Virus record (IMG/VR): IMGVR_UViG_3300043775_003319
Coordinates: 1-59,030 of that record
Direction: 5' to 3' (one strand)
DNA length: 59,030 nt
From: a virus
The notes under the pieces were generated by a model. It was not told the DNA's origin and made no database searches. It saw only the letters and a list, made by a program, of their open reading frames with translations. The position numbers were made by a program, and so were the translations under genes. Every line of letters begins with the position of its first letter. Position 1 is the first letter of the stretch. Below are positions 5,047 through 47,183 of this stretch, one piece after another.

Positions 5047-5060
5047 CTAAATTTAATGAC

Positions 5061-5574: not shown

Positions 5575-5640
5575 CAAAATGTACAGTATTCTGTACAAAA
5601 TCGCACAATTTGTGTAAAATAACAAACAAGAGAAGAAGAA

Positions 5641-17544: not shown

Positions 17545-17667
17545 ATGTCTTTTAATAAAAAACAATTAGGTAAAGATGCTGCAGAAGCAAAAAAACCTAT
17601 CAGCAAACAACAATTGAAACCTATCATACCACCTATGAAAAAAGGTGGTATGACAAAAAAATGCTAA
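17545..17667 (+). CDS. 40-aa protein with a Lys-Lys-Gly-Gly motif
   Basis: ATG at 17545 opens a frame of 40 residues ending at TAA 17665-17667, fitting the 144-nt gap between its neighbours exactly. It is very Lys-rich and ends PPMKKGGMTKKC. A near-identical MKKGG occurs close to the C-terminus of the 1910-residue protein (residues about 1834-1838). Short basic 'KKGG' proteins are familiar from marine phage head modules. It may be a small virion or DNA-associated protein. Confidence 0.65.
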   Translation: MSFNKKQLGKDAAEAKKPISKQQLKPIIPPMKKGGMTKKC

Positions 17668-23471: not shown

Positions 23472-23496
23472 TAAATTACTAAAAAAAATAAAAAAA

Positions 23497-28165: not shown

Positions 28166-28837
28166 ATGATAACAATAGGTGAAGTACTTTCGAGAGTACG
28201 TAATCAAATAAAAGCAGTAAAGCAGGATGCTTTTCTTACAGATAGATTTTTATATTCTATGGTAATGAAGCATGCTAAAATGCTTGTGCGCAGACAAGAT
28301 ATACAAAATAGAATTATGAAATTCAACAGTGTATTTCAAGTGTTGAATTACGTTGAACTTATTGAAGTAGACCGTGCAGAATCTAAATGCCATTGTATTA
28401 CATCTGGTTGTACATTTAAACGTACAAAAAATAAATTGCCAAACATGATGGAAGGACACTGGGGACCTATTTTTAGATCTGTAACTTCATTGGATTTGTC
28501 AGAAGAAGTATCACCTACCTATCCTAATATTTATGAAAAAATGTCTAATCAAAAAACATTTAAGTATAATAAAAAGAAATACTATTGGTTTATGGATGGA
28601 CATGTTTATTTTCCAAATTTAGAATGGGATGCTGTAAGAATTGAAGGTGTGTTTGAAGGTGATATTAGCGGATACAACTGCGACACTGAAGACGATTGTA
28701 TGTATATACAAGACAAAAATTTTGCTATTCCTGAATATTTATATGCAGAAATTGAACAAAATGTTATTAAAGATTTAGGAGCAATGATGGCTGTACCATC
28801 TGATCCTCAACAAGATAATAGAAACATTATTAATTAA
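28166..28837 (+). CDS. probable structural connector protein, 223 aa
   Basis: I associate this pattern with a conserved structural protein of crAss-like phages: an opening GEVLSRVRNQIKAVKQDAF (residues about 5-23), then RFLYSMVMKHAKMLVRRQD, followed by NKLPNMMEGHWGPIFRSVTS, and a beta-rich end with VYFPNLEWDAVRIEGVFEGD at about 150-169. The likely location is the connector/tail ring under the portal. The family memory is from protein patterns, not from a search. Confidence 0.65.
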   Translation: MITIGEVLSRVRNQIKAVKQDAFLTDRFLYSMVMKHAKMLVRRQDIQNRIMKFNSVFQVLNYVELIEVDRAESKCHCITSGCTFKRTKNKLPNMMEGHWGPIFRSVTSLDLSEEVSPTYPNIYEKMSNQKTFKYNKKKYYWFMDGHVYFPNLEWDAVRIEGVFEGDISGYNCDTEDDCMYIQDKNFAIPEYLYAEIEQNVIKDLGAMMAVPSDPQQDNRNIIN

Positions 28838-29952: not shown

Positions 29953-32900
29953 ATGGCAGAAGAAACAAAAAATACAGGAAATCCACAATTGATTAACAGC
30001 TTTATCAAAGGCATGGTAAAAGACAATACAGATGTCTATATACCAGAAGGCGTTTGGACAAATGCTATTAATGCAATTAATAATTCACACACAGGTGAAT
30101 TAGGTGCGATAGGAAACGAACAATCAAATTTATATTGTACAACTTTTCCATACACTGTAATAGGTGTAATTAATAAATATAAAACAGAATGGGTTATATT
30201 TAGTACAAATAACATTGACTCTGAAATAGGAGTTTTTGATGAGGCTACATGTACCTATACTAAAAAAGTAAACGATAAATGTTTAAATTTTAGTACTTAT
30301 AATTTAATTACAGGAGCTGTCAAAATGAATTATGATGGTTCATATTCTGTTTATTGGCAAGATAATTTGAATCCTGATCGTGTAATGAATTTGGATGATG
30401 ATAAGATACCATATGTTTGCACAACACCTACAATAACTGTAGATAAAATTTGGAACAATTATACAGTTACAAGAGCTGCTCAAGCTAATCCTTGTGGTCA
30501 ATCTACTAATTCAGGAGGTCCTGGTGTAACAAATACTGTACATTCACTTGGTGATAGTTACGGTGTTGTTACAATAGATTACGAAATGTACACTGTTAAA
30601 GATAAACTTGAAGTGTGGTTTGATGCAGACCCTGCAACAGATCCTCCTACAGCAACAACAAGTGTTCCTGTATCAGGAACCGGTACAGTAACTTTTAATA
30701 AATTTACGTCAACTTCTACTTGCTATGTAAGAGTAACAGGACCTAACAATACAGAATGGAAATATACTGTAAATTGTCCAGTTGTTACAGCAACTACTCC
30801 TCCTATGCCTGTAATACCAACAGGTATATTTTACACAGATACTTCTAATAATATTGTAGAAGTTCCTTCATTAGGATACGGTCAATCTATTACTATATGC
30901 GCTTTGGCACAAAGTATTGATATTGTAAACATTGTAAATGGATATACTATATCTGCTCCATTAGCAATCTGTAACGAGGTTCATGATACAATTCCTGATC
31001 CTGATGCTTGTGGTGCAAAAATTTGTACTGACCAATTAGATTGTGACGCTTTAAGATTACATCCTTTAGTAAAACAGCCTTGTGTTACAATAAATAAATC
31101 AAAAGGTAGTGGTCAATTAAACAATGGTTCTTATCAGGCTGTTATTGCATATTCTGAGAAAGGTATTAAACTTACTGATTACAGTATGCCAAGTAATATT
31201 CAATCATTATGGGATCATACTGGAATGGGTGGATCTTTAGATATTACAATTGACAATATTGATAAAAACTTTGAAGAATACGAGTTAGTAATAATTGCTA
31301 CAATTAATCAACAATCTGTTGCAAAAAAGATTGGTTACTACTCAACAGAACAAACAAAGGTTCATTTAGATTTATACAATGCTTCGTTAATAACAGTGGA
31401 GTTATCACTTATACCTGTTAAAAATGTAGTGTATGAAAAAAGTGAAAAAATGTTTGATGTAAACGGTTATTTAGTACGTTCTGCTTTAACTACACAACCC
31501 TTTTTTAATTATCAACCTTTAGCAAATAATATAAAATGCAATTGGGTTGCTGTTCAATATCCTGCAAGTTATTATTGGGATGGTGGAAATGAAACAGGTT
31601 ATTATAGAGACGAAGTGTATCCATTTTTTATAAGATGGGTTTATAAAACAGGTGCTAGATCAGCATCTTTTCACATACCTGGTAGAGCATCTTTACCAAG
31701 TGATCTTACAGTATTACCTGTTACAAATCCTGATTTAATAGATCCAACACGAAGAAAATATTGGCAAGTGTATGACACGTCTACTATTACAAGCATGGCT
31801 ACAGATGATAGAAACGATGGAGGTCTTATAATTGCTCGTGGTGACATGGCATATTGGGAATCTACAGAATTATATCCAAATAGTCATCCTGAAATATGGG
31901 AGGATTTATGTAATAAACCTATAAGACATCATAAGATGCCTTCTAATGAAACTATTCATATTCATGACATAACTGGTAATTATATAAATGTATTAGGGGT
32001 AGAGTTTACAAATATTAAACACCCTGTAGATTTAGATAATAATCCTATTCTTGATATTGTAGGATATGAAATACTTAGAGGATCACGTGAAGGAAACAGA
32101 AGTATATTGGCAAAAGGTCTTTTTAACAATATGGTTCAATACGACATGCAAAATAATGTAACTCAAAAAGGATTGTTTCAAAACTATCCTTATAATGACG
32201 TTACTACACCTGATCCGTTTTTATTGTCTTCTAATAATTTAGAAGTACAAAATGATATATTTTCATTTCACTCGCCTGAAAACAATTTAGTAAAACCTTA
32301 CATGGGTTCTGGTGGACATATAAAAATGTATACAGAAGAACTAGGTAATTCTGAAACATATGGTTTAATACCTTACAAACATCCTAAATTTAAGTACATA
32401 CACGAAGATATATTTGCAGCAAGTGCTGTTATTGCAACAGGTATTGCACTTTTAACATTGTTTGGAAAACAATCAAGTTCTTATACAACAACTGCTCATA
32501 CAAGCACAGGTGGTGAAATTTGGGTAGGTTCTGCATTAGCAGGGTATGTTGTAAATAGAATTCCTACAGTTAATTTTGATACTTCTACTACAAATCAAAG
32601 TGAAGGAGGACTTTCGTCAACTGGTGCAACAATGGTTGTAAATCAAATATCAGCAGGTGCTGACGCTGCATTTAGTGGAGGAACAGGTTTTGCAAAATAT
32701 GCAGCTATTTTTACAACTATTGTTCAAGCAGCATTACAAGCAGAAATGACTTTTATTCAATCATTACAAACAATGATTGATATTATTTATAACATTATTA
32801 ATTACAACGACTATGTTGTACAATTAAATAGTCATGCGTTTTATAATTCTTACTCTAATGTTGTAAACACAAACACTCCATCTTTATTAAAACCTTCTAT

Positions 32901-35667
32901 TACAAGACCTGTTGCTTCTCAAGGTGCAAAATATGTTAGCTCAGGACTTCAAGATTTTAATTCTACACAAAGAATTAACAACTTAAATAGAAATAAATTT
33001 TTGGCAGTGCAGTCTAAAACAGATATTCCTAATACGTATAACGTTGATGATTCTAAACAATTATTATCAGACACCGATAACATTAGTAAAATATATACAA
33101 CAAAAACTGCATCTTATTACGGAGCAATAAAAGTAGATTACGAAAATCAATATGGACAACTGTACTCTATTGTGCAAATTCCTGTTAATTCTTGTGTATA
33201 CGAAACACTTGACGATGTTACGTTATCACACACAACTTCTCAAATATTTGGTGGTGATATTTATATAAATAGATATACAGAAAAAAATACATATTATTTT
33301 TATAATACATGGTTGATTGATGTACCAAATGGTACAGAATGGAATTACCAAAATTATGTAAATGGTCCTACACCTGTTTATTGGTTAAATTCTAAAAGAT
33401 ATCAAGCTACAGATTTTGATATATCATTAGACTGGGGTTTAATACCTGAATTTGAATTTGATACACCTAGTGATTATTATAATTTACATGGTAAAAAATC
33501 AACAGGACAACTTATACGTTCAAGTTTTAAAAACGCTTGGATGTACTTGTCTTACAATGGTGTTAGAGATTTTTTTACTGAATCTGAATTAAACGTTGCA
33601 TTTAGAGATTATGGTGAAGAACCTTGGGAAAAATTTTATGATCCTGTTGGTAATTCTTTTACTGATTTAGACACAATGTTTAGAAGCGATATTATAACAA
33701 AACCTGTTTATTATGAATATGACTTGTCACTTAGCGCATCGAAATTATACAGTAACTTTGCTTCATGGGCAAATATTTTACCAAGGGACTATGATCCAAC
33801 CCTCTATACCAGCTACTTTGAATACTACCCACGAAGAATTGTGTATTCATTACAGCAACAAGAAGGACTTAAAAGAGACAACTGGAGAAATTATTTACAA
33901 AATAACTATAGAGACTTTGACGGAAAAATAAGTACTATAAAAACTTTAAATGCTCAAGGCGCAATAATGTTATTTGAAGATATTGAACCTACACAATTTG
34001 TAGGTGTTGATACTTTTGAATCACAAGGAGGTGTAAAATATACAATAGGTGACGCAGGTTTGTTTCAACAAAATATGCAATCTCTTGTAAATGCTGATGA
34101 TGCTTTTGCTTATGGTACATGTATATCAAGTAAATCAGCTGTAAATACACCATATGGTTTATTTTGGGTATCACAACAAACAGGAAAAATTATTAATTAT
34201 TCAGGTGGAGGAATGGATGAAATTTCTAAAGACGGAATGAAACACTGGTTTTTAGAAAATCTTCCGTCACCACTTTTAAAAAAATATCCTGATTTTAAAT
34301 TGTATGATAATGTAATTGAAGGTATATCTGTGCAATCAATTTTTGATTCTCAATATGATCTTTTATATTTTACTAAAAAAGATTATGTACCTAAACCAGA
34401 GTTTGATGAAATAATTGATTGTTTAGTTTATATTAATGGTGAAGGATATTTTATTAATCAATCTGAATGTGATGGTCAAGGATATTTACAAACTTGTCCA
34501 CAAGGTTATACACTTGTTGCTGGTGAATGTCAAAAAACAAACATTACAAATATATGTAGTGAAGGATACACTTATAATTCTGTAACAAATAAATGTGAGG
34601 CTACAATACGTGTAGCAGCAACATGTTGTAATACAGTGGCTCCTGTTGCAAATGCTTCTCAAAGTTTTTGTTCTGGTAAAACAGTTGCTGATTTACAAGC
34701 TGTTGGACAAAGTTTAAAATGGTATTTACTACCTGTAGGGGGTACTGCATTATTGTCAACAGATGTTTTAACAAATGCTACATATTATGTTTCACAAACA
34801 ATAAGTGGTTGCGAAGGTCCAAGATCTGCAGTAATTGTATCTTTGATTGTTGTTGCACCTCCTACAGCAACTTCTTTACAAGAATTTTGTTTAGCAGGTC
34901 GTACAGTTGCTGATTTAGTTGCTACAGGAAATTCTATTAAATGGTACGCTGCAGCGACAGGAGGTTCTGCTTTAAGCAGTAGTACATTACTAGTAGATGG
35001 TCAAACTTATTATGCAACACAAACTGTAAATGGTTGTGAAAGTGCAAGAAAAGCAGTAACTGTAAATATAAATGCAATTGAATGGGCAGCTAAAAACTTA
35101 GAGGTTACTACTTATAGAGATGGCACACCAATACCACAAGTTACTGATGCAACACAATGGGCAAATCTTACCACTGGCGCATGGTGTTATTATGAACATA
35201 ATTCTGCTAATGGTCCTGTGTATGGTAAACTGTATAATTGGTATGCTGCAGTAGGAATACATAATTCTGCATCATTGACAGATCCTTCGTTAAGAAAACA
35301 AATTGCACCTGTTGGATATCGTGTACCTACAGAAGCTGAATACACTACATACATAAACTGTTTAGGTGGAATATATATTGCAGGTGGTAAAATGAAAGAA
35401 ACAGGTCTTGCACATTGGAATAGTCCTAACGAAAGTGGTACTAATTCTAGTGGTTTTACAGGTGTAGGAAATGGTTTTAGACCTGAAGGAAATTCTCATG
35501 TTTTTGCAAGATTAAAAGAATGGGCGCAATTATGGATTACTGATTATGATGCTAGTCAAACCACACAACCTGCTAAAGTTTTGAGTTTACAATATGATTA
35601 TGCAATTGTAGGTTTTAGCAGAAGAAATCCTAAATTTGGTGCAGGAATTAGATGTATAAAAGAATAA
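29953..35667 (+). CDS. giant tail protein with Ig-like and FISUMP C-terminal cassette, 1904 aa
   Basis: The N-terminus (INSFIKGMVKDNTDVYIPE, then SNLYC ... VIFSTNN-DSEIGVFD) resembles the large beta-propeller tail ('stabilization') proteins of crAss-like phages. A hydrophobic stretch lies at about residues 820-842. At about 1515-1556 a Cys-rich linker (CPQGYTLVAGECQ; NICSEGYTYNSVTNKCE) leads to two Ig-like adhesin domains at about 1558-1706 (SFCSGKTVADLQAVGQSLKWY; YATQTVNGCESARKAVTV). A FISUMP domain at about 1710-1903 follows (AKNLEVTTYRDG, GYRVPTEAEY, GAGIRCIKE). The last two are typical of secreted Bacteroidota proteins. It is probably a tail/receptor-recognition component. Confidence 0.78.
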   Translation: MAEETKNTGNPQLINSFIKGMVKDNTDVYIPEGVWTNAINAINNSHTGELGAIGNEQSNLYCTTFPYTVIGVINKYKTEWVIFSTNNIDSEIGVFDEATCTYTKKVNDKCLNFSTYNLITGAVKMNYDGSYSVYWQDNLNPDRVMNLDDDKIPYVCTTPTITVDKIWNNYTVTRAAQANPCGQSTNSGGPGVTNTVHSLGDSYGVVTIDYEMYTVKDKLEVWFDADPATDPPTATTSVPVSGTGTVTFNKFTSTSTCYVRVTGPNNTEWKYTVNCPVVTATTPPMPVIPTGIFYTDTSNNIVEVPSLGYGQSITICALAQSIDIVNIVNGYTISAPLAICNEVHDTIPDPDACGAKICTDQLDCDALRLHPLVKQPCVTINKSKGSGQLNNGSYQAVIAYSEKGIKLTDYSMPSNIQSLWDHTGMGGSLDITIDNIDKNFEEYELVIIATINQQSVAKKIGYYSTEQTKVHLDLYNASLITVELSLIPVKNVVYEKSEKMFDVNGYLVRSALTTQPFFNYQPLANNIKCNWVAVQYPASYYWDGGNETGYYRDEVYPFFIRWVYKTGARSASFHIPGRASLPSDLTVLPVTNPDLIDPTRRKYWQVYDTSTITSMATDDRNDGGLIIARGDMAYWESTELYPNSHPEIWEDLCNKPIRHHKMPSNETIHIHDITGNYINVLGVEFTNIKHPVDLDNNPILDIVGYEILRGSREGNRSILAKGLFNNMVQYDMQNNVTQKGLFQNYPYNDVTTPDPFLLSSNNLEVQNDIFSFHSPENNLVKPYMGSGGHIKMYTEELGNSETYGLIPYKHPKFKYIHEDIFAASAVIATGIALLTLFGKQSSSYTTTAHTSTGGEIWVGSALAGYVVNRIPTVNFDTSTTNQSEGGLSSTGATMVVNQISAGADAAFSGGTGFAKYAAIFTTIVQAALQAEMTFIQSLQTMIDIIYNIINYNDYVVQLNSHAFYNSYSNVVNTNTPSLLKPSITRPVASQGAKYVSSGLQDFNSTQRINNLNRNKFLAVQSKTDIPNTYNVDDSKQLLSDTDNISKIYTTKTASYYGAIKVDYENQYGQLYSIVQIPVNSCVYETLDDVTLSHTTSQIFGGDIYINRYTEKNTYYFYNTWLIDVPNGTEWNYQNYVNGPTPVYWLNSKRYQATDFDISLDWGLIPEFEFDTPSDYYNLHGKKSTGQLIRSSFKNAWMYLSYNGVRDFFTESELNVAFRDYGEEPWEKFYDPVGNSFTDLDTMFRSDIITKPVYYEYDLSLSASKLYSNFASWANILPRDYDPTLYTSYFEYYPRRIVYSLQQQEGLKRDNWRNYLQNNYRDFDGKISTIKTLNAQGAIMLFEDIEPTQFVGVDTFESQGGVKYTIGDAGLFQQNMQSLVNADDAFAYGTCISSKSAVNTPYGLFWVSQQTGKIINYSGGGMDEISKDGMKHWFLENLPSPLLKKYPDFKLYDNVIEGISVQSIFDSQYDLLYFTKKDYVPKPEFDEIIDCLVYINGEGYFINQSECDGQGYLQTCPQGYTLVAGECQKTNITNICSEGYTYNSVTNKCEATIRVAATCCNTVAPVANASQSFCSGKTVADLQAVGQSLKWYLLPVGGTALLSTDVLTNATYYVSQTISGCEGPRSAVIVSLIVVAPPTATSLQEFCLAGRTVADLVATGNSIKWYAAATGGSALSSSTLLVDGQTYYATQTVNGCESARKAVTVNINAIEWAAKNLEVTTYRDGTPIPQVTDATQWANLTTGAWCYYEHNSANGPVYGKLYNWYAAVGIHNSASLTDPSLRKQIAPVGYRVPTEAEYTTYINCLGGIYIAGGKMKETGLAHWNSPNESGTNSSGFTGVGNGFRPEGNSHVFARLKEWAQLWITDYDASQTTQPAKVLSLQYDYAIVGFSRRNPKFGAGIRCIKE

Positions 35668-35683
35668 TATAAAAAATAAAAAA

Positions 35684-36625
35684 ATGGCTTGCACATGTCC
35701 AGATCCTAGTTGTACACAAGTAGTAATCAATAGTATTACATATTGTGATTGCGTTGTTAGTGTTTCTCCACAAATATGTCCTCCAGGATGTATTACAAGT
35801 GTTGAAACAAACGAGTGTTTATGTACAGAAACAGTTGATCCTATTAGTAATCCTGTATTAATACCTATTGATATTAAAGATTATTTAGAAGAAATTCGAT
35901 GGACAATAAGTTATGATCCAAAAATAAAAACATGGTTATCATTTCATGATTGGCATCCTGAATGGCTGGTTCCTTCTTTTAATCATTTTTTAACAATTAA
36001 GACTACAGGTTCACAAACACCTGTTACAAAAATTTGGAGACACAACGTTAGAAAAGATAGTTTTGCAAATTACTATGACCAAAATTTTCCATGGGAAATA
36101 GAATTTCCTATTGTAACACCGAACACAATAACAACCTTGAGAAGTTTTGAATATACACTTGATGTGTATAAATACTTTAACAATGGTAAAGATTTTAATC
36201 ACGCATTAGATGAAAACTTTGATAGAGCTATTATTTATAATTCTGAACAAAACAGTGGGTTATTAAAATTAAATTTAAAATCAAAAAATAATCCTTTGTC
36301 TTTATTAAATTATCCAATCGTTAATAATTTTGATATTGATATACAGTACAGCAAAGAAGAAAATAAGTTTAGATTTAATCAATTTTACGATGTTACTAAT
36401 GATAGAGGTGAGTTTTCAGGAAACAATGTTCCGATGTGGGTGACACAAGAAGATGGTTATCATAAAAACTTTAACGTTCCTTATTATAATTTTAACAAAG
36501 CGCCTTTAGAGCATAAAAAGTTTAGACATTATGGTAATAAAGTCATTTTGCGAAAAAACATAAGCAATGATAAAAAAATGATTCTTAAATTTGTTAATAA
36601 TAAATACTTAATAAGTCCAAGGTAA
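35684..36625 (+). CDS. probable detached C-terminal part of the tail protein, 313 aa
   Basis: A Cys-rich start (CICTxxC-type: CTCPDPSCTQ, then QICPPGCITSVETNECLC) aligns with the linker before the Ig cassette in the preceding protein. The rest begins YLEEIRWTISYDPKIKTWLSFHDWHPEW and ends in a beta-rich part with FDRAIIYNSEQNSGLLKLNLK and KAPLEHKKFRHYGNK. In related tail proteins, as I recall them, such segments are the C-terminal continuation of the same polypeptide. The start is ATG 35684 in an A-rich leader, so it is expressed separately. Confidence 0.65.
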   Translation: MACTCPDPSCTQVVINSITYCDCVVSVSPQICPPGCITSVETNECLCTETVDPISNPVLIPIDIKDYLEEIRWTISYDPKIKTWLSFHDWHPEWLVPSFNHFLTIKTTGSQTPVTKIWRHNVRKDSFANYYDQNFPWEIEFPIVTPNTITTLRSFEYTLDVYKYFNNGKDFNHALDENFDRAIIYNSEQNSGLLKLNLKSKNNPLSLLNYPIVNNFDIDIQYSKEENKFRFNQFYDVTNDRGEFSGNNVPMWVTQEDGYHKNFNVPYYNFNKAPLEHKKFRHYGNKVILRKNISNDKKMILKFVNNKYLISPR

Positions 36626-39600
36626 TGGCTACAAACAAAGACATATTGATGAAATTCATCACAGGACAAGTTGAAAAAACTCGTCAGGATGTATCTGAAA
36701 AAGGATATAAAGATAATTCACCTTATAAAAACAATCCTTCAAACACTATTTATGGTACACCGGAAGGAACATCTATAACAATGAAAGGTGTGAGTACTCC
36801 TCTTATTGGTATAGATGAGTTTGGTAATAAGCAATACATGGAGCCTGGACAAGAATATTTCTTTCCAGGTTCTCAAGTTACCGAAACACCTTTTGCAAAA
36901 TATGGAGGATTGCTTAACAAAACAGTTACATGTTCTAATTGCGGTTGGTCATGGAAAGCTGCTAATGGAGGTAATGATGTTTCTACTTGTCACAAATGTG
37001 GTAATGAAAACAAAATAATGCAAACAGGTGGTGAAGCGGATTTTAACAAAGTAAAAGAATGGTATAATAATTATATAGATTCGCCACTGTATAAAAGAAA
37101 TTTAGAAAATTCAGGATACCCTGATGTTGACAAAGTAATTGAACAAAGAAAGTCAAATATAGGTAAAACAGAATTTTTAAATGATGAAAACAAATTTGGT
37201 ACATACTACCAACCTAATACTAATGTAATTCATTACTCTCCTGAAAAAGATTCAGAAATTTGGTCTAAAGATTATGATTCTGTTTTACCAACTGATTCTG
37301 TATTAGCACATGAATTTGGACATGCTGTTTTAGATAATAGTAAAACTTTTTTTGGAAGACAGACACCTGCTTATAATAGATACGACTATCAACAATTAGA
37401 GTCAAGAAATAAAGATAGAAAAATATCAAGAGGCGCTAATGAAAACTATGCTGATCAAAAAGCGTTACAATACGAGGCTGCAAAACTTAACATTTATAAA
37501 CCTGGTTATGAAGAGTTTACAAAAGAACATTTAGAAGCATTACCTTCTGATGTTAAAGAAAGAGCTTTAAAAAATTATTCAGAAGAAGATCTTATTTGGT
37601 TAATGAACAACATTGCTCAAAATGACAATGATGTAAATAATAATTTATCTCTTGCTCAAACAGGAGGTGAGCAAATGTTCAATGTTTCATTAAATGAACC
37701 AATGATAATACCTTCTCAAGGCAGTTATCCTTTAAGTTATAAAGATAGAGGTGATAGAGATACTGATGGCACTTTGTTTACATCTGCTAAAAAAGTAAGT
37801 AGAGTAGATGAAAATGGTAAACCTTTATCTGCACCTCAGATTAGAGAAAATCAATTAATGTGGAATATGCAAAAACTTGCGTATAGTCCTTATCAACAGT
37901 CTTTTAATATTTGGAAAAACAATGCTCAGAATAGTGCTCAAGGTTTTTATAATCCTCGTGAGTACTCTAAATATTTAAGTAAAATAAATTCTGGTCCTGA
38001 TGTAGGATTAGATGGATTATGTGATCCTAATTTTTCATCTACTAAATGTGGTACTTCTAAACAACATGCAAAGGAAGATAAAAAAGAATGGTCTAAAAAA
38101 CAATTTGGAGGTGACTTATACTCAGATTATAATCTTCCTATTGCTCAAGATGGCGGAAGAGCTACAAGAGCTGATAGTCTTGCTTTATATAATAATAGTG
38201 TAAAAGTAGAATCTTATTATAATAATAAAAATTATAAAAATGATCATGTAAATTATCATCAAAATCCTTATGCTCATAAAATGAATGATGATGAAGTTAA
38301 AGAGTTTAAACATAGAGGCAGCAGAGCCCAAGTTCCTACTAAAAACAATGAATCAACAGAAATTAAACTTCCTAATAACATTTATAGAAAAGATATAGAT
38401 AAAAATAAATATTTACAAAGAGAATTGGCTACTAGGATTTTAGACACTCGAGCACCAATGCAATTATTTGATAGAAGAATAACCCCAACATCTTTTAAGT
38501 CTTTTAAAAATATTAATGAAAATGATATAATGGATGGAGATGCTATAACTTTATCTGGATATGATCCTATTTCTGTAAAACCATTTGATTTATTGACAGA
38601 AAAAGAAAAAAAACTTAGAATTGAAAGATATGGTATGGATGGTGTACCTAAAAGTTATTTATCTAAAAAATCAATAAAAAAAGAAACAGATAAACCTATT
38701 AAAGTTAAACCAGAACTGCAACCAAGAGTGGAAGCTATAAACTTATCACTAATGCAAAATCAAGATCCATCGTTCCCTAAACAAGAACTGGATTTGATAA
38801 GACCTATACAAGCTCCTAAATCTTATAATGTTAATATGCAAAGATATAACATGAAAGGACCTAGTGATTATTATCAAGCTAATGAAGAAGGTGTTGATTA
38901 TCAAAGAGCTATGGAAATCAAAGCTGCTTCAGATGCATATAACAAATACATACAAGAAAAGTATGGTAATGAAGATGCTCTTAAAAATCCAAAAGCTGTA
39001 GAGAGATTAAAACAGTTAAGAAGTGAATTTAACATAGAATCTAATTATAAATTTGGAGGAGATTTGTATCAATATCAAAACGGTTCTCAAACATGGGATA
39101 AACAAAAACAAAATCTTAAAAATGAAAAATTAGAAAAATTAAAAAGATTATTAAGTTTACCAGATCCTGTTTTTAAAGCAAAAACTTTTGAAGAAAAAGT
39201 TGCTGAAAAAATGGAACAAGAAAAATATAAAACTACTTCTAAAGATAACACTACTGTAAGAAATTATAATAATGCTAATAAACATTCTAATGCTGCAAGA
39301 AATAAAACAAACAAAGAATTTGCAGATGAAAGACAAGCAAAAATAGATGCACAAGTTCAAGCAAACAAACAACCTTTTGATTGGAACAATTTTAGACAGT
39401 CTTTGTCAGATAGAAGTCAGGCAACAGGAGATGCTATGAGAATATCAAATGAACCTAACTTTTTTGATGATTATATAAATCCTGCAGTAATGATAGGAAG
39501 TATGGCAGATAATTTAGGTCAGGCACCTTTAAGAGCGCAACAAGAAGATTCTTATATGCCTTATGTAACATCTGTTGGAGCACCTTTGCTTACAGGTGCT

Positions 39601-42357
39601 TTAGCAGGAATTGGTACAAAAAATACAGGTCAGTTTATAAATAATGTAGTTAATCCTTTAGCAGGATTTGGAATTAAAAAAGGAACGGTCAAAGGTGAAA
39701 TACCTAAAATAGGAGATGACTTTGCAAATGCTATTCATAATCTTGATGGAGATAAAATATTTTATGATACTACTGACACAAGTAATTTTTTAAAAGGTGA
39801 ATGGAAATATGTAGATGAGTTACCAAATGAAGGAGGAATTTCAGAAGTAGAGCCTTTTAATAATGCACTTGACGAGCTAATTGTTAAAGCAACATATGCT
39901 GAAAAACCTTTACTTACAAAAAAAGACTTTTTTACAAATAAAGAACTTGTCGATAAAATAGCAAAAGAACGCAGTTATTGGGATAAGTTTTTTAAATTTT
40001 CTGATGAATATCCTTTAAGTGATGCTGATATGGTATTTGACAAAAAATTTCCTGAACTTAAAGCTGGCAGTTTTAAAGAAAAGTTCATGACACCAGAACA
40101 ATATAATTATGCAAAATCTAAATTAGGTATATTTGGCGATCTTGGACATCAAGATATTACAAATCCTACAATATTTAAAAAACAATTAGATTCAAATTGG
40201 AATAATGCACAAGCATTTGATGCTCAAGATTTTCAAAATGCATTACGTAATACAATTTTTGAAAGAACAGGTAAAATTAAAAATGCAAATCCTGATTATT
40301 TAAAATCTCTTATAAAAAGTGATGAAATATTAACACCTGAACTTTTAAATAGAATGGGAACTATGGAAAATTATACAGGTAATCAGGCTTTTAAAACTTT
40401 AAATGCCAATAAATATGGAGGTATTATTAACTTTTTACAAAAAGCACAAGAAGGAACAACTGTTACCGTAGATCAAGGTGATGGTATTAAAAAAAAAATA
40501 TTAACCGATTCAAGAGAATATTCTGATGCGTACAATGAAGGCAGAATTGGTGTAAAAAATGATGACGGAAGTATTTCTTTTAATCCTTTAAATGAAGTTG
40601 TTGTCACTCCTTATGATAAAGAATATCCTTTTTATCAAGAATTATCAGATGAAGAAAAGAAATATTTTAATGATGATACTCCAATAGGAAGAGCTGTTAG
40701 AAGAAAAGCATATACAAAAAATTCATTAAGTGACGATGTAACAGATATTGCAGCTCCTATATTATATGGAACTGCAGCAGCAATGCTTGCACCATATGCA
40801 TTAGCTCCACTTGTAGCAGGATTAGAATTTGCAGGTGCTGCAGCTGCTCCATACGTTGAAGGAGCATTAGCAACTTCTTTACCAGGTATGTCTTCTATTC
40901 CAGGAGCTACTGTTGGTAATGCTATTAATGCAGGTTTTGCAGGACATGGTTTATATAATATTGCACCTGATGCTGTAGAAATGTATAATAATCCATCTTG
41001 GAGTAATGCAGGTAATGTAGGAATGGATGTTTTAGAAATTGCACCTGTTGCAGGACCTGCAGGAAGAATGATAGGTGAAGGAATATCAACTGTAGGAAGA
41101 ATGCCAAAACAACTACCTGGTTCTAGTACTGTTGATTATGCTAATTCTATAAAAGATGTTGTTACAACATTTAAAAATAGAAATAAAAAATTATTAACTG
41201 TTGGTGCTGAAAATTTAGATAAAGAGTTGTTAAAAAAAATTGAACAACTTGAGTCTCCTGAAGGATTTAGTAGATTAGTTACACAAGAAGCTGAAATGTT
41301 AAAAAGAGATTTTCCTTTATTAGAACGCATAATAGATGTAGAAAAAAAAGCAGTCAGCAATGCTCATACAAGAATTTCAGAATTGTATCAAACAGCTTTG
41401 CAGGGAAATTTTAACAGAAATTATTTAGAAGCTAAAAAATTAAATCCTGGATTAACACCAAAAGAATTTGGAATACCTACAAATAATGCGTTTTTTAGAC
41501 AGGGTTTAGGTTCAAGTAATTATTCAGATAATGCTCTTAATTTAAGTAAAGAACCAAGTTTAAGAGATAATGTTTTTTCAAATACATATTATAATGCTGA
41601 GCTTCCTGGAGAAATAGCAATTGGTAGAGAGTATGCAGAAGCAATGCCTGTCTATGATCATGAAATAAATCATGCTTTACAAAATAGTAGAAATACTACT
41701 TTAGATGATTTACTTAGAAAATATTTTAATAATTCAGAAAACTTATCAGAAAACTTATCAGAAAAAACAAAAAAGGCATATAATTATTTTAGAAAAAATA
41801 AAGTTGGCATGCCTTCAAGAGAACCATCATCATTTTTAGCTGAGGCAAGAAGATCAATGTTAGAAAGAGGATTAATAAAAGATATCTATGAACCAATTAC
41901 TCCTAAAAAAGTTTTTGAGGCAATGAAACATTTTAAAAAAGAACCTTATATAAATCCTTATACTGAACAATCATATCATAGATTATTTGATTTTGCTGAT
42001 GATCATCCAAAAACTTTGAAATTTTTATCAAGCATGTTTAACAAGCTTCCTGCAGCAGTTCCTGTTGGTTTGGCAGTAAGCGCTGCATCTCAAGCAGAAA
42101 CAAAAAAAGAACCTGTTTCAGGAATGAAAAAAGGAGGTGTGACTAAATTGTCAGAACTTGATAAATTAGCAATACAAGAGTTAGGTGGAATGTTACATGT
42201 AAATGATAAATTACCACATGAACAATCGATAGTAAAATATCTTGGTCCTGAAAAATCTGTTTTAAATTTTATGAAACAAAAAAAAGCAATTGGAGGTTTT
42301 GTACCTTTTAACGAATATTACAGAGAAAACATTATAAATCCAAGAAATAAATCGTAA
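36625..42357 (+). CDS. giant virion-cargo-like protein with two zincin motifs, 1910 aa
   Basis: The start is in the stop codon region of the previous gene (TAATGG). A zinc ribbon lies at residues 103-125 (C-x2-C-x15-C-x2-C), a zincin motif HEFGHAVLD at 229 and a second HEINHALQ at 1679. Hydrophobic segments lie at about 976-995 and 1373-1440 (AAMLAPYALAPLVAGLEFAG), possible membrane-penetrating regions. Short x-Gly-Gly motifs recur at 93, 134, 346, 494, 509, 810, 1264 and 1836. Large size, peptidases and hydrophobic helices fit an injected 'polyvalent' protein that is processed or processes others. It is rich in Lys, Asn and Tyr. Confidence 0.65.
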   Translation: MATNKDILMKFITGQVEKTRQDVSEKGYKDNSPYKNNPSNTIYGTPEGTSITMKGVSTPLIGIDEFGNKQYMEPGQEYFFPGSQVTETPFAKYGGLLNKTVTCSNCGWSWKAANGGNDVSTCHKCGNENKIMQTGGEADFNKVKEWYNNYIDSPLYKRNLENSGYPDVDKVIEQRKSNIGKTEFLNDENKFGTYYQPNTNVIHYSPEKDSEIWSKDYDSVLPTDSVLAHEFGHAVLDNSKTFFGRQTPAYNRYDYQQLESRNKDRKISRGANENYADQKALQYEAAKLNIYKPGYEEFTKEHLEALPSDVKERALKNYSEEDLIWLMNNIAQNDNDVNNNLSLAQTGGEQMFNVSLNEPMIIPSQGSYPLSYKDRGDRDTDGTLFTSAKKVSRVDENGKPLSAPQIRENQLMWNMQKLAYSPYQQSFNIWKNNAQNSAQGFYNPREYSKYLSKINSGPDVGLDGLCDPNFSSTKCGTSKQHAKEDKKEWSKKQFGGDLYSDYNLPIAQDGGRATRADSLALYNNSVKVESYYNNKNYKNDHVNYHQNPYAHKMNDDEVKEFKHRGSRAQVPTKNNESTEIKLPNNIYRKDIDKNKYLQRELATRILDTRAPMQLFDRRITPTSFKSFKNINENDIMDGDAITLSGYDPISVKPFDLLTEKEKKLRIERYGMDGVPKSYLSKKSIKKETDKPIKVKPELQPRVEAINLSLMQNQDPSFPKQELDLIRPIQAPKSYNVNMQRYNMKGPSDYYQANEEGVDYQRAMEIKAASDAYNKYIQEKYGNEDALKNPKAVERLKQLRSEFNIESNYKFGGDLYQYQNGSQTWDKQKQNLKNEKLEKLKRLLSLPDPVFKAKTFEEKVAEKMEQEKYKTTSKDNTTVRNYNNANKHSNAARNKTNKEFADERQAKIDAQVQANKQPFDWNNFRQSLSDRSQATGDAMRISNEPNFFDDYINPAVMIGSMADNLGQAPLRAQQEDSYMPYVTSVGAPLLTGALAGIGTKNTGQFINNVVNPLAGFGIKKGTVKGEIPKIGDDFANAIHNLDGDKIFYDTTDTSNFLKGEWKYVDELPNEGGISEVEPFNNALDELIVKATYAEKPLLTKKDFFTNKELVDKIAKERSYWDKFFKFSDEYPLSDADMVFDKKFPELKAGSFKEKFMTPEQYNYAKSKLGIFGDLGHQDITNPTIFKKQLDSNWNNAQAFDAQDFQNALRNTIFERTGKIKNANPDYLKSLIKSDEILTPELLNRMGTMENYTGNQAFKTLNANKYGGIINFLQKAQEGTTVTVDQGDGIKKKILTDSREYSDAYNEGRIGVKNDDGSISFNPLNEVVVTPYDKEYPFYQELSDEEKKYFNDDTPIGRAVRRKAYTKNSLSDDVTDIAAPILYGTAAAMLAPYALAPLVAGLEFAGAAAAPYVEGALATSLPGMSSIPGATVGNAINAGFAGHGLYNIAPDAVEMYNNPSWSNAGNVGMDVLEIAPVAGPAGRMIGEGISTVGRMPKQLPGSSTVDYANSIKDVVTTFKNRNKKLLTVGAENLDKELLKKIEQLESPEGFSRLVTQEAEMLKRDFPLLERIIDVEKKAVSNAHTRISELYQTALQGNFNRNYLEAKKLNPGLTPKEFGIPTNNAFFRQGLGSSNYSDNALNLSKEPSLRDNVFSNTYYNAELPGEIAIGREYAEAMPVYDHEINHALQNSRNTTLDDLLRKYFNNSENLSENLSEKTKKAYNYFRKNKVGMPSREPSSFLAEARRSMLERGLIKDIYEPITPKKVFEAMKHFKKEPYINPYTEQSYHRLFDFADDHPKTLKFLSSMFNKLPAAVPVGLAVSAASQAETKKEPVSGMKKGGVTKLSELDKLAIQELGGMLHVNDKLPHEQSIVKYLGPEKSVLNFMKQKKAIGGFVPFNEYYRENIINPRNKS

Positions 42358-42371
42358 ATTAACAATGTAAA
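42354..42371 (+). promoter_or_regulatory. late-promoter candidate motif, copy 3
   Basis: GTAAATTAACAATGTAAA overlaps the stop codon of the 1910-aa gene and lies 36 nt upstream of the ATG at 42408. It shares GTAAATT and AATGTA with the other copies. Two ACATGT palindromes follow at 42371-42376 and 42385-42390. Confidence 0.5.
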
Positions 42372-42407
42372 CATGTGATTATAAACATGTAACTAAAATT
42401 TTATATT

Positions 42408-43934
42408 ATGAGTAAAACTTGTCATGATTGTGGAAAAGAATTTGCAATGCCGTTAGCGTATTACATAAATCCTTTGACAATTGTCAAAACTGGTGGAGAA
42501 ATGATTAAACGTGCAGATGGCTCTTATTCAAAAAGAGGTCTTTGGGATAACATACGTGCAAACAAAGGTTCTGGAAAAGCTCCTACTAAAGAGATGCTTG
42601 AACAAGAACGTAAAATAAAATCTAAACAAATGGGTGGAGATTCTCAAAATGAAATTGTTAAGTTGATTAAAATGTATGCTCAAATGCATAATGTTGATCC
42701 TCAAGTTATTGTGCAAAAATTACAAGAACTTGATGAGTATCAGCAAGAACAAGCATTACAGTCAATGGTTGCAGAAATACAACAAAACAGTGGTGCAGAA
42801 CAAGAAGCACCTATGTCTTATGCAAATAATGATGAAAATACTGAAATGCAATCTTATCAAGTAGGAGGCGCTTATGATTATAAGACAACAGGAGGATATG
42901 GATATCGAGGAGCTGCAGGTATAGGTGAAGGAATGCCTAATATATTACCAGCAATAAATACTGTTGCTTCTGGTGATTCAGATTTAGCAGGAGGAATAAA
43001 AGCTATAACTGGAGTGTTAGGACTTGCATCAGGTTTAGCAGGTTCAGCTTTAGGATATGGAAAATCAGCACAATGGGTTGGTAATAAAATAAAACCTGGA
43101 AGCAACATATTAGAAAAAACAAATAACACTTTAAGAAATGTTGTTGACTTTGGTGTTGATGCAGGTTATGGTTATCCTTTAAATAGAAATGATATTTCTA
43201 AAACAAACAATAACACACCAAATCCATACATTGATTATTCTAAAGTGTCAAATACAGACTTTACTAAAATGCCTGTATACAATGATAATCCTAATCATAA
43301 AAATACAATGGTAGGTAAATATGGAGGGTATCTTCCTAAACATCAAGGAATTATTCCAGGTGTTTCTAGCACAGTAGGCGATGGATCAGCAGGAATGATG
43401 ATGAACGATGGTTCTGCTAATTACAATGATGGATATTATCAAGCATATACACAAGACAATAATGCTTATAATAAAGTTGATTATAATAAACAATACATGA
43501 ACATGTCTTTAAAAGATGAGCAACTAAAAAAACAAAAAGATACTACTTTTAATAAGGTTTCTGACAACAATGGTTCTGACTTTAGTGGTATGGAATATGC
43601 TCAAAAAGCCATTACAGGTCTTGGTTCTTTCAATAGTTATTTAGACTGGAGAGAAAACAAAAGAAGACAAAGAGATTATGAAGACATGTTAAAAACAACA
43701 GGTAATACTGATTTTAGACTTGCTTCAAATGCTCCAAATCCTTATGGTAATTACACACTTAACGTGGGACCTGCAAATAATTTTCAATTAGGTATGACAA
43801 CTCCTATTCAGGATTTTGGTACTACTGCAAAATATGGTGGACAAGCATTTGCTGAAGGTGGAGAATATCAAGTATCAGAAGATGAATTATTACAACTTAT
43901 GCAGAACGGTGCTGAGATTGAATTCGTCAATTAA
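42408..43934 (+). CDS. probable virion cargo/internal protein, 508 aa
   Basis: N-terminal CHDCGKEF (residues 5-12) is a half zinc knuckle. A helical Gln/Glu segment at about 75-135 (VQKLQELDEYQQEQALQSM) and a Gly/Ala-rich hydrophobic patch at about 190-222 follow. x-Gly-Gly motifs are at about 31, 75, 153, 305 and 478. The segment KYGGYLPKHQGIIPGVSSTV at 304-323 is nearly repeated in the next protein (about 530-549). An acidic end resembles a packaging or processing signal. No function can be named, but shared motifs tie it to its large neighbours. Confidence 0.55.
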   Translation: MSKTCHDCGKEFAMPLAYYINPLTIVKTGGEMIKRADGSYSKRGLWDNIRANKGSGKAPTKEMLEQERKIKSKQMGGDSQNEIVKLIKMYAQMHNVDPQVIVQKLQELDEYQQEQALQSMVAEIQQNSGAEQEAPMSYANNDENTEMQSYQVGGAYDYKTTGGYGYRGAAGIGEGMPNILPAINTVASGDSDLAGGIKAITGVLGLASGLAGSALGYGKSAQWVGNKIKPGSNILEKTNNTLRNVVDFGVDAGYGYPLNRNDISKTNNNTPNPYIDYSKVSNTDFTKMPVYNDNPNHKNTMVGKYGGYLPKHQGIIPGVSSTVGDGSAGMMMNDGSANYNDGYYQAYTQDNNAYNKVDYNKQYMNMSLKDEQLKKQKDTTFNKVSDNNGSDFSGMEYAQKAITGLGSFNSYLDWRENKRRQRDYEDMLKTTGNTDFRLASNAPNPYGNYTLNVGPANNFQLGMTTPIQDFGTTAKYGGQAFAEGGEYQVSEDELLQLMQNGAEIEFVN

Positions 43935-43969
43935 TAACAAAATCAGAAACAAAATAGGAAAAAACAAAT

Positions 43970-43991
43970 TATATTTGTAAATTCTAAATGT
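43970..43991 (+). promoter_or_regulatory. late-promoter candidate motif, copy 4, fused to a TATATTTG box
   Basis: TATATTTG (43970-43977) runs directly into GTAAATTCTAAATGT (43977-43991), 39 nt upstream of the ATG at 44031. This copy joins the host-type -7 box to the phage motif. It suggests that the motif includes or abuts a transcription start. Confidence 0.6.
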
Positions 43992-44030
43992 GATAGATTT
44001 ATCATTTTTAACTTTAAACTTTAAAAGTTT

Positions 44031-47000
44031 ATGTACAATATTAGAATAAAACAGCTACCAAAAAATGGTGATCAACGTAATTATAGTTTAGTTGACAGAA
44101 ACGATTTATATATTAAAGTAAATCCTGTTAATAGTGATTCCAATGTGAAAAACACTATTAGTGCAGTTCCACGCGATGAGGCTAACATAGAAGCAGAAGG
44201 TGGTGAAACTGTAATAGGTGATATTAATAACGATGGTTTTTTAGAACATAGTAAAATTGTTGGTAAAAGACATACTGAAGGAGGTGTTCCTTTAAATGTT
44301 GCACCAGGTTCTTTTATATTTTCTGATACTAAAAAGTTAAAAATTAAAGATCCCGAAGTGCTTTCTATATTTGGAATATCAAATGTTCCAAAAGGGGGAA
44401 TAACTCCTGCAAAAATTGCACAAAAGTATCCAATGAATAATTACATGAATACCATGAAAAGCAATGAGTCGGATCCTATTGCAAAACGCACTGCTACTCA
44501 AATGATGAAAAATAATCTTGAGAAGTTAGGAATGCTTGCATTAGTACAAGAATCAATGAAAGGTTTTCCTGATGGTATTCCTGCAATTGCTGAATCTGTT
44601 ATGGCAGGATTACAAGGACAGCAATCACCTGGTCAAGAACAAGGTGGAGGCAGTGCGCGTGAATCAATGGAAGGTGCTGAAAATGAAATGAAATATGGTG
44701 GTGGTTATTACCAGAATGCTGGAACAACAAAAGAAAAACAAAAAAATAAAGTAACTTCTGCTGGCAATCCTGTTGAAGGATTTAAGTTTTATAATGGAAT
44801 CACACCTGTTACAGTAACAAAAGTAAACAAAGAATATGGTGTTGAAAATCCAAACAGTCCTTATATTGAATTAAGTAATGGTGAAAGATTGACTAAAAAA
44901 CAATTTGAACAATTACTAACAAAAGGTTATTATAATTATATCCATGGTGGAATCGGTGATGTTTATACAATAAATCAAAACATACAAAAAAGAACTCTTA
45001 AAAATTCCAGCGGCAATACTGTAAAAGGTTTTGATTTGTATTCAGGTGATAAAATAAATTTTAAAGGAAATGATTATACAGTTGTAAATCCTTACGCTGA
45101 TAATTCACGTGGTTATTATGACACAATGAAACCTTTAAGAGATATGTTTGATAATACTCAAGGTATTGTTCAAGTAAGAAATAATAAAACTGGACAATAT
45201 GAGTATATCGAAGGAGAAGATTTAGCAGATGCTTATGTTTTTGATAACTCACAAGTTCCTATTTTACCAAATGAAAGTTTTAGAACTGCTTTTAAAAACA
45301 ATCAAAAACGAAGTGTTACTAATCCTGGATATGATGTTGTAAGTCCTTCATATGCATCGCAAAATAAACAAGTTTCTTACACACCTTCTGCAAATAATAC
45401 TATAAATGTAACTGGTGAAACTAATTTGCAACCTTTGGATACAACAACTGTAGTTAATAAAAAACAAGTTGTAAAGGATAACGTTCCTGTCAAAACTGCA
45501 AAAAATACATATACACCACAACGTTCTTCAAATACAAATATTGCTCCAAAAACAAATACTACAGCACCTGTTGCAAAACCTGCAGGTGTGACTACTGAAT
45601 ATGTAGATGATGAGTTTGAATATGGTGGCACTTTACCAAAACATCAAGGAACACAACCTGGTGTACCGAGTACTGTACAAGGACCTGGACCTAGTGATAA
45701 AACAATTGTTAAATGGCAAATTAATAATAAAACAGGTAATAAAAGACCTGTGTATTCTGATGGAACTTTTGGTGACATTGTTCAGTATGATGTTGCTGAC
45801 AAAGATCTTAGAACAGAAGTATCCGGCAAAGGATACGAGTTTATAGATTTAAAACCTGAGTTTAGATATCAAGGTACAACTGTTGGACATCAGACTGCAG
45901 AATCAGGATATAAAGTAGATAATGAATCAGGATTTTTATATAAAGATATTAAACCTGGAACTGCAGGTTTAGAAAATTATATGGAAATTCATTCTGATGC
46001 AATTAACGCTTTTCCAGGTGGTGCAGAAGCTTGGAAAAAAACTATGTTGGCAACACCAGGAAAAGAAAATCCTGCAATGACTCATTTGTTAAATTATCAA
46101 AACTCAGCTATTGGACTTTTATCAGGAGACAAACCATACGTAGATTTAAACAAACCAGGTGCATTAGTACCAGGTGTTGAAAACTTTAATTTACCAGGTG
46201 TTAGAAAAAAACCTGCACCTATTGAAATTCCTAAAAATAAAGAGGAAGAAATTATTGTTAATAAAATAGAAAACAAACTTCCTGTAAAAAGAAGAAGACC
46301 TTGGTGGATACAAGATTCAATGAACTACGCTGCAGCAATGACTGATATTATTAATTATTATCCTCCTGCAATGAGTAGAGTTGATCTTGAAACTCCTGGT
46401 TATGTTATTGAAGATCCTGATAGACAAATTGCAGCAATGCAAGAAATGGGTGCAAGAGCAACAGAAGCTGCTATGAATAGTACAGCAGGAAATGTTGCAG
46501 GTGCATCTTTAGCAGCTCAATCTGATCAAAGACTTGGTCAATCAGCAAATATAATTGCAGGTGTTGAAAATAGAAATGCTCAAATTGTTAATCAAGCTCT
46601 TGGAAGAAATGCTCAAATTACAAATCAAGAATCAATTCTTAATGAAAATGCTAAACAAAAATACATTGCAGACTCTGCAATAGGTAGACAAAATTATGAC
46701 AATGCTTTACGCGAACTAAAATATAGAAAAATAAAAGCATGGAACAATGGTACTACAAATTGGATGCGTCATAAACAAATGGAAGATGTATTGTTTCCAA
46801 ATGTTGGTATTGATTCTATTACAGGTGATGTTTATTTTCCAGGTGGAAGACAAGCATTTGATGCTCAAGGTAGAGAAGTATATGATCCATACATAAATCC
46901 TGCAAATCCTAATGACACATCTTCTTTATCAAAAAGAAATTTTGAAGAAAGATATAATTATTGGACATCTAAAGGTTTATCTCCAGAAGACGCTTCTCGC

Positions 47001-47183
47001 AATGCTCATTATGAAATAAATAAACAAGGTGCGGCTACAGGTTCTAAATCTGATTATGGTCAATACATGGCTGCTAATCAAACATTACCACAAGAAACAA
47101 AATACGGTGGAAGAATAAAAAAACAATATGGAGGTGTTGTATTTGATTTTGGTGCATTACCTTTGTATTTCTTTGAAGATTAA
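44031..47183 (+). CDS. large virion-cargo-like protein, 1050 aa
   Basis: The N-terminal domain (residues about 40-190) carries NIEAEGGETVIGDINNDGF, GKRHTEGGVPLNVAPGSFIFSD and KYPMNNYMNTMKSNESDPIAK, a conserved pattern I know from large phage proteins next to crAss-like tail genes. A Pro/Thr/Asn-rich middle at about 440-540 follows. A helical C-terminal third (AAMQEMGARATEAAMNSTAGN; NAQIVNQALGRNAQITNQ) resembles an internal ejection protein. x-Gly-Gly motifs lie at about 224, 531 and twice near the end (TKYGGRIKKQYGG). It begins after promoter copy 4. Confidence 0.6.
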   Translation: MYNIRIKQLPKNGDQRNYSLVDRNDLYIKVNPVNSDSNVKNTISAVPRDEANIEAEGGETVIGDINNDGFLEHSKIVGKRHTEGGVPLNVAPGSFIFSDTKKLKIKDPEVLSIFGISNVPKGGITPAKIAQKYPMNNYMNTMKSNESDPIAKRTATQMMKNNLEKLGMLALVQESMKGFPDGIPAIAESVMAGLQGQQSPGQEQGGGSARESMEGAENEMKYGGGYYQNAGTTKEKQKNKVTSAGNPVEGFKFYNGITPVTVTKVNKEYGVENPNSPYIELSNGERLTKKQFEQLLTKGYYNYIHGGIGDVYTINQNIQKRTLKNSSGNTVKGFDLYSGDKINFKGNDYTVVNPYADNSRGYYDTMKPLRDMFDNTQGIVQVRNNKTGQYEYIEGEDLADAYVFDNSQVPILPNESFRTAFKNNQKRSVTNPGYDVVSPSYASQNKQVSYTPSANNTINVTGETNLQPLDTTTVVNKKQVVKDNVPVKTAKNTYTPQRSSNTNIAPKTNTTAPVAKPAGVTTEYVDDEFEYGGTLPKHQGTQPGVPSTVQGPGPSDKTIVKWQINNKTGNKRPVYSDGTFGDIVQYDVADKDLRTEVSGKGYEFIDLKPEFRYQGTTVGHQTAESGYKVDNESGFLYKDIKPGTAGLENYMEIHSDAINAFPGGAEAWKKTMLATPGKENPAMTHLLNYQNSAIGLLSGDKPYVDLNKPGALVPGVENFNLPGVRKKPAPIEIPKNKEEEIIVNKIENKLPVKRRRPWWIQDSMNYAAAMTDIINYYPPAMSRVDLETPGYVIEDPDRQIAAMQEMGARATEAAMNSTAGNVAGASLAAQSDQRLGQSANIIAGVENRNAQIVNQALGRNAQITNQESILNENAKQKYIADSAIGRQNYDNALRELKYRKIKAWNNGTTNWMRHKQMEDVLFPNVGIDSITGDVYFPGGRQAFDAQGREVYDPYINPANPNDTSSLSKRNFEERYNYWTSKGLSPEDASRNAHYEINKQGAATGSKSDYGQYMAANQTLPQETKYGGRIKKQYGGVVFDFGALPLYFFED

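What the first reader, a model, noticed from the sequence alone, without database searches (positions are those of the whole stretch)
36901..47140. Recurring x-Gly-Gly motifs across the cargo proteins and a small head protein
Short motifs such as KYGG, QTGG, KFGG and MKKGG recur at least 15 times in the proteins at 36625, 42408 and 44031, usually between domain-like regions, and MKKGG is also in the 40-aa protein at 17545. A 20-residue stretch around YGG-LPKHQG-PGV-STV is shared by two of them. They may be processing sites for the virion peptidase(s), or packaging signals that load cargo into the head.
Basis: partly seen in the sequence, partly recalled or inferred. Interest (0 to 1): 0.7.

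Follow-up and report, generated by a model that had tools for sequence, protein, structure and literature searches.

The report
Repeated Gly-Gly junction motif in phage cargo
In a relative of the gut crAss phages, the large proteins packed in the virus head carry many copies of a short K/Q-x-Gly-Gly motif that sits between swappable protein modules; the motif recurs in cargo proteins across crassviruses and is more likely a docking or hinge element than a cutting site.

Summary
[KQ]-x-GG occurs 17 times, only in the three cargo-type proteins (36625, 42408, 44031) and the 40-aa head protein (17545); none of 42 Gly-Gly pairs in 34 other proteins has it (p=2e-8). The 20-residue stretch is real (15/20 identical).

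The phage is crassvirus-like (capsid and ring proteins). Relatives fetched through a domain of 44031, not through the motif, show the same enrichment in the same genes (176 observed, 49 expected) and none in the next gene. Extended forms (GGSLPKAQ, GGWLDKYQ) occur in about 90 viral loci; 43 of 50 contigs tested encode a crassvirus capsid protein.

The motifs mark junctions between exchangeable modules (zincin, zinc ribbon, cell-wall enzymes, a 66-aa beta domain). 44031 carries the domain by which crAss001 cargo protein gp45 sits on the portal (profile P=7e-7). In gp45 that ordered segment includes an intact FGGWL motif, so a general cleavage site is unlikely there; both ordered gp45 fragments begin at an [FY]GG motif.

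Best reading: uncut junction motifs of modular ejected cargo, probably docking or retention sites (inferred, about 0.45). Plain flexible linkers and proteolytic processing remain open.

The parts
36898..36909 (+). KYGG motif 1 of the 36625 protein (aa 92-95), directly after the mobile beta domain
37021..37032 (+). QTGG (aa 133-136), between zinc ribbon and zincin module
37657..37668 (+). QTGG (aa 345-348), end of the zincin module; 80% identity with L002 ends here
38101..38112 (+). QFGG (aa 493-496)
38146..38157 (+). QDGG (aa 508-511)
39049..39060 (+). KFGG (aa 809-812); a 57% identical block shared with L002 begins here
40411..40422 (+). KYGG (aa 1263-1266)
42127..42138 (+). KKGG of MKKGG (aa 1835-1838)
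42486..42497 (+). KTGG (42408 protein, aa 27-30)
42627..42638 (+). QMGG (42408 protein, aa 74-77)
42858..42869 (+). QVGG (42408 protein, aa 151-154)
43317..43376 (+). KYGGYLPKHQGIIPGVSSTV (42408 protein, aa 304-323), local copy of the widespread GG-x-L-P-K-x-Q element
43830..43841 (+). KYGG (42408 protein, aa 475-478)
44691..44702 (+). KYGG (44031 protein, aa 221-224), in the low-confidence tail after the portal-type domain
45618..45677 (+). EYGGTLPKHQGTQPGVPSTV (44031 protein, aa 530-549)
47100..47111 (+). KYGG near the C-terminus of the 44031 protein (aa 1024-1027)
47124..47135 (+). QYGG near the C-terminus of the 44031 protein (aa 1032-1035)
17545..17667 (+). 40-aa basic protein with C-terminal MKKGG, in the slot after the 338-aa head gene; homologues end in RMGGKTKKC, MKYGGMKGGKKC or KKMGGSIKK
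36625..42357 (+). 1910-aa modular cargo-type protein (beta domain, zinc ribbon, zincin HEFGH, further modules, second HExxH at aa 1679)
36706..36909 (+). mobile ~66-aa all-beta domain (aa 28-95), found in 68 ORFs of the fetched loci; matches a virion structural protein family (phrog_36695)
37033..37659 (+). zincin-like module (aa 137-345), in 9 proteins with 9 different neighbourhoods
42408..43934 (+). 508-aa cargo-type protein with 5 motifs
42498..42629 (+). module EMIKRADGSYSKRGLWDNIRANKGSGKAPTKEM.. between KTGG and QMGG; a stand-alone 47-51 aa gene in relatives
44031..47183 (+). 1050-aa cargo protein, related to crassvirus C1
44148..44621 (+). ordered N-terminal domain (aa 40-197), homologous in part to the portal-bound domain of crAss001 gp45

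Best explanation
The x-Gly-Gly motifs are short linear motifs at the junctions of modular 'beads on a string' cargo proteins of crassvirus-like phages. Shown: they are enriched only in the cargo-type genes of the window and its relatives, they delimit modules that are exchanged between proteins and phages, they fall in low-confidence linkers of the two AlphaFold models made, and 44031 has the domain by which crAss001 cargo protein gp45 sits on the portal. Reported for crAss001: one such motif lies uncut inside the portal-bound part of gp45. Inferred: the motifs work without being cut, as weak, repeated docking or retention sites that hold the chain on internal head or tail surfaces (portal, tail barrel), while the glycines form hinges that let the folded modules be threaded out one after another at infection.
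For: Gene-specific enrichment in the window and in relatives, with the downstream gene as an internal negative control. Extended motif GG-[SW]-L-[PD]-K-[AY]-Q found by DNA pattern alone in 56 and 38 loci, none with the reversed peptide, often several copies per protein; 43 of 50 such contigs carry the crassvirus capsid protein. Module junctions: alignment ends fall within 15 aa of a motif in 31.8% of cases against 15.3% expected, with a masked-random-site control at 15.5% against 17.0%; 80% identity to L002 stops at QTGG 345-348 and another block starts at KFGG 809; a module that is a free 47-51 aa gene in relatives sits between KTGG and QMGG in 42408. Homology of the 44031 N-domain to the gp45 portal-bound domain, hhalign P=6.9e-7; two control comparisons 0.03 and 0.5. 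gp45 ordered segments 425-552 and 214-245 both start at an [FY]GG motif, chance about 0.002, judged after the fact. AFGG-x-LNTQGG is conserved as the start of the portal-bound domain. C-terminal placement GGWLDKYQ-stop, 21 of 91 sites against 0.6 expected, though mostly one family.
Against: No binding partner is identified. Motif variants are not more alike within a genome than between genomes (permutation p=1.0), so there is no sign of co-evolution with one receptor. Individual sites turn over in distant relatives. Packaged proteins without the motif exist (RNA polymerase subunits of crAss001). The stand-alone 47-51 aa module lacks the motif. The docking argument rests on two fragments of one protein; the contacts of the GG residues were not inspected.
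Confidence: 0.45

Rival explanations
1. The motifs are only flexible Gly-Gly linkers that have become seams of domain shuffling; they have no receptor, and the sequence around GG is inherited with the shuffled modules (for example as the tail of the 66-aa beta domain, ..EYPM-[AM]-[QK]-x-GG).
For: The beta domain has a Gly-Gly pair close to its end in 43 of 68 cases; motifs lie at low pLDDT; module ends cluster at motifs; no genome-level coherence of variants.
Against: Conservation extends beyond GG on both sides (GG-x-L-P-K-A-Q, GGWLDKYQ) in otherwise unrelated modules; a C-terminal copy links nothing; one copy is ordered in the virion (PMC10172136).
Confidence: 0.33
2. The motifs are cleavage sites: a virion or prohead peptidase, perhaps one of the zincins in the cargo, cuts the polyprotein into modules during maturation or after ejection.
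For: Multi-enzyme strings with a motif after each module; conserved residues on the upstream side ([MYF]-[KQAR]-x-GG); zincins lie in the same protein.
Against: gp45 is modelled unbroken across FGGWLNTQGG (residues 425-552) and is thought to span portal and tail as one chain over several further motifs; C-terminal motifs leave little to release; strong conservation downstream of GG is unusual for a protease site; no GG-specific protease family was seen among the window proteins that were scanned.
Confidence: 0.18
3. Chance or composition: glycine- and lysine-rich proteins give such tetrapeptides by themselves.
For: 42408 and 44031 are glycine-rich (11% and 9%).
Against: Shuffle and Fisher tests in the window, and replication in relatives with a flat neighbouring gene.
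Confidence: 0.02

Closest known systems
Cargo protein C1 (gp45) of Bacteroides phage crAss001 (Kehishuvirus)
   Same: Portal-bound domain homologous to the 44031 N-domain; Gly-Gly motifs strung along the protein (21 GG; AYGGPL, AFGGSL, AFGGWLNTQGG); comparable gene position after the ring and muzzle-position genes.
   Different: In gut crassviruses the motifs concentrate in C1; here they are spread over three large proteins and a small head protein. Residues before GG are mostly Ala-Phe/Tyr there, Lys/Gln-x here.
Capsid targeting sequences of phage T4 internal proteins (IPI-III)
   Same: A short sequence shared by otherwise unrelated packaged and ejected proteins (PMC9026906).
   Different: The T4 signal is N-terminal, single, about 10 residues and removed by gp21; here it is internal or C-terminal, repeated, and intact in the one case with structural data.
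Prohead-protease motifs of phiKZ-like phages (SPN3US gp245)
   Same: Recurrent short motif in ejected head proteins, some with several copies (PMC10052503).
   Different: Those sites are cut and release N-terminal propeptides; here there is no evidence of cutting and no such protease was found.
Virion proteins gp080/gp081 of Cellulophaga phage phi14:2
   Same: Annotated as structural by MS/MS; zincin domains separated by GG motifs.
   Different: Motif residues differ (AAMGGPVDPP); few copies.

Membership tests
Crassvirales-like phage | Crassvirus major capsid protein (PF23898) | tested here: met
   window 14657-16300, 113 bits against a 27-bit cut-off
Crassvirales-like phage | Crassvirus tail ring proteins 1 and 2 | tested here: met
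   PF24228 at 28846-29949, PF25702 at 28166-28837
Crassvirales-like phage | virion RNA polymerase with DxDxD-type catalytic motif | tested here: inconclusive
   No D.D.[DG] in 47205 or 49824; the 54855 ORF runs off the contig
Crassvirus cargo protein C1 (gp45) | portal-bound domain | tested here: met
   hhalign of 47 against 12 sequences, P=6.9e-7, 80 aligned columns
Crassvirus cargo protein C1 (gp45) | same fold as the solved gp45 fragment | tested here: inconclusive
   No PDB match to the model; the library keeps one chain per sequence, and which gp45 fragment is held is unknown
T4-type capsid targeting sequence | single N-terminal signal | tested here: not met
   Motifs are internal, C-terminal and multiple
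T4-type capsid targeting sequence | removed by the prohead protease | not testable with these tools
   Needs virion proteomics; crAss001 gp45 argues against it
Adenain-type viral Gly-Gly protease sites ((M/I/L)xGG, consensus from general knowledge) | hydrophobic residue two places before GG | tested here: not met
   That position is Lys or Gln here; the hydrophobic residue, when present, is one place earlier

The most novel reading that the evidence does not exclude
A crassvirus-wide cargo code: repeated x-GG linear motifs act as multivalent docking tags that let almost any enzyme module (peptidase, lysozyme, amidase, ADP-ribosyltransferase-like) be part of a protein string stored at the portal and injected into the host cell.
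Probability: 0.33. Interest if true: 0.82.

Novelty: new variant of a known kind. Interest (0 to 1): 0.6.

Why it matters
Crassviruses are the most abundant viruses of the human gut, and how they load and eject megadaltons of protein is open. A short recurring motif that marks module seams, and that starts both ordered cargo fragments in the one virion structure at hand, gives a concrete testable handle on cargo storage and ejection. It also allows cargo genes to be annotated by motif and domain where families give nothing. No paper in the held library contains the peptide GGWLDKY.

Tried and rejected
Genome-level coherence of motif variants, as a sign of one receptor per phage: negative, p=1.0. 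Fold matches of the 44031 N-domain and the mobile beta domain in the PDB: no significant match, only weak cupin-like or helical similarities. A ubiquitin-like reading (beta domain ending in xGG): the model is all-beta without the beta-grasp helix, so it was dropped. Homology of the mobile beta domain with the portal-bound domain or the 44031 N-domain: not supported. DNA-level repeat as the origin of the motif: codons differ. Recoded stop codons in the apparently empty 3' end: it is an ordinary open-ended ORF. Exact GGWLDKYQ hits in bacterial genomes: four, each single in an unannotated open frame of 59-105 codons with 1-2 GG pairs, read as chance. 44031 protein against annotated phages by tblastn: no match.

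Full report
OBSERVATION. The 36625 (1910 aa), 42408 (508 aa) and 44031 (1050 aa) proteins contain 8, 5 and 3 copies of [KQ][^G]GG, and the 40-aa protein at 17545 one. None of the 42 Gly-Gly pairs in 34 other proteins, 14,574 aa, fits the motif (p=2.5e-8), although the 1904-aa fibre-like protein has 16 Gly-Gly pairs. The shared stretch is 15/20 identical in protein but only 68% in DNA, and glycine codons in the motifs are mixed, so selection is on the peptide.

REPLICATION. Sixty-five viral loci were fetched through the N-terminal domain of 44031, without use of the motif. By gene position relative to the 44031 homologue, non-redundant proteins hold [KQ]xGG 38 times against 8.4 expected (-3), 71 against 25 (-2), 176 against 49 (-1), 106 against 47 (0), but 20 against 22 (+1) and 3 against 7 (+2). 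Upstream residues are also biased: Met/Tyr/Phe at -3, Gln/Ala/Lys/Arg at -2, Tyr/His/Glu at -1. Single sites are mostly kept in close relatives and turn over in distant ones.

A WIDER ELEMENT. The window's GG-x-LPKHQG belongs to an element GG-[SW]-L-[PD]-K-[AYH]-Q. DNA patterns for GGSLPKAQxG and GGWLDKYQ hit 56 and 38 loci in the viral collection; the reversed peptide hits none. Many of the ORFs hit carry two to seven such elements. In one family the element is the very C-terminus (NFTNYN..KPTKGGWLDKYQ-stop; 21 of 91 sites lie at the end against 0.6 expected, not independent events). Of 50 contigs found by the motif alone, 43 encode the crassvirus capsid protein, and none of 14 control genomes does.

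THE PHAGE AND ITS CARGO GENES. Capsid and ring proteins place the window with the Crassvirales. The ordered N-terminal domain of 44031 (aa 40-197, pLDDT above 90) is homologous to the segment of crAss001 gp45 that sits on the portal (hhalign P=6.9e-7; control comparisons 0.03 and 0.5). In crAss001, gp45 is cargo protein C1, with residues 425-552 bound to the portal wing and 214-245 inside the tail barrel (PMC10172136). In the human gut crassviruses examined, Gly-Gly motifs likewise concentrate in C1 rather than in polymerase subunits.

MODULES. L002, a relative, matches the 36625 protein at 80% for residues 1-349 and stops at QTGG 345-348, where a second, different HExxH module follows; another block begins at KFGG 809. 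Among 198 motif-bearing proteins, with motifs masked, alignment ends lie within 15 residues of a motif in 31.8% of cases against 15.3% expected; randomly masked sites give 15.5% against 17.0%. Segments between motifs recur in different contexts: a 66-aa all-beta domain (aa 28-95 of 36625; 68 ORFs, at N- or C-termini or inside, usually followed by PM[AM][QK]xG or xGG), the zincin (9 proteins, 9 contexts) and a small basic module that in relatives is a separate 47-51 aa gene beside the capsid genes. Other cargo-type strings carry lysozyme, amidase, transglycosylase, LysM plus L,D-transpeptidase, or ADP-ribosyltransferase-like modules, fitting roles at cell entry.

THE SMALL HEAD PROTEIN. The slot after the 338-aa head gene holds, in several relatives, small basic proteins ending in RMGGKTKKC, MKYGGMKGGKKC or KKMGGSIKK; in others it is empty. 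So the link between cargo and a small head protein is real, but the protein is not present throughout the lineage.

HOW IT MAY WORK. Cutting is not favoured: gp45 is modelled unbroken through AFGGWLNTQGG (which starts at residue 425 of the modelled 425-552), its two fragments are thought to be bridged by one chain running through portal and tail, and C-terminal motifs would release almost nothing. Docking is favoured moderately: both ordered gp45 fragments begin at an [FY]GG motif (chance about 0.002, judged after the fact), and AFGG-x-LNTQGG is conserved as the start of the portal-bound domain. Against a receptor: motif variants are not coherent within genomes. A plain flexible seam with no receptor therefore remains a serious rival. 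Steps shown: enrichment, modularity, homology to C1. Steps taken from a published structure: the intact motif on the portal. Steps inferred: docking, hinge, order of threading.

LIMITS. No structure, proteomics or genetics of this phage exists. The motif regular expression was set on the window; relatives are the fair test. The crAss001 coordinates could not be opened here. Only sequences held in these collections were searched.

Noticed in passing
window 5256-5577 (+): A tmRNA gene in the phage (Rfam RF00023, 80.7 bits; ARAGORN tag ANAQIEANMNKVFSLLGEEVAVAA), beside a tRNA-Met gene at 4972-5047.
   Followed up: partly
window 23437-26136 (+): Tail-region protein with spondin-like TSP1 domains and beta-propeller repeats (Pfam PF19028, PF17164), unusual for a phage.
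   Followed up: no
window 29953-35667 (+): 1904-aa protein ending in a Fib_succ_major domain with Ig_7 domains, typical of Bacteroidota surface proteins; possible host-derived adhesin.
   Followed up: no
window 54855-59030 (+): Open-ended ORF of at least 1392 aa with a HEAFH zincin-like motif and no Gly-Gly motif; probably a further large cargo-type protein cut by the contig end.
   Followed up: partly
L090:4588-10248 (-): A motif-bearing cargo-type string with an ADP-ribosyltransferase domain, recalling the packaged Alt enzyme of T4.
   Followed up: no
L014:1469-8215 (-), L031:3674-11737 (+): Cargo-type strings with LysM repeats and an L,D-transpeptidase (YkuD) domain, unexpected enzymes for phage entry.
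   Followed up: no
window 42498-42629; L197, L201, L207, L213: The RGLWDNIRANKGSGKKPTPEM module exists both inside cargo proteins and as a separate 47-51 aa gene beside head genes.
   Followed up: partly
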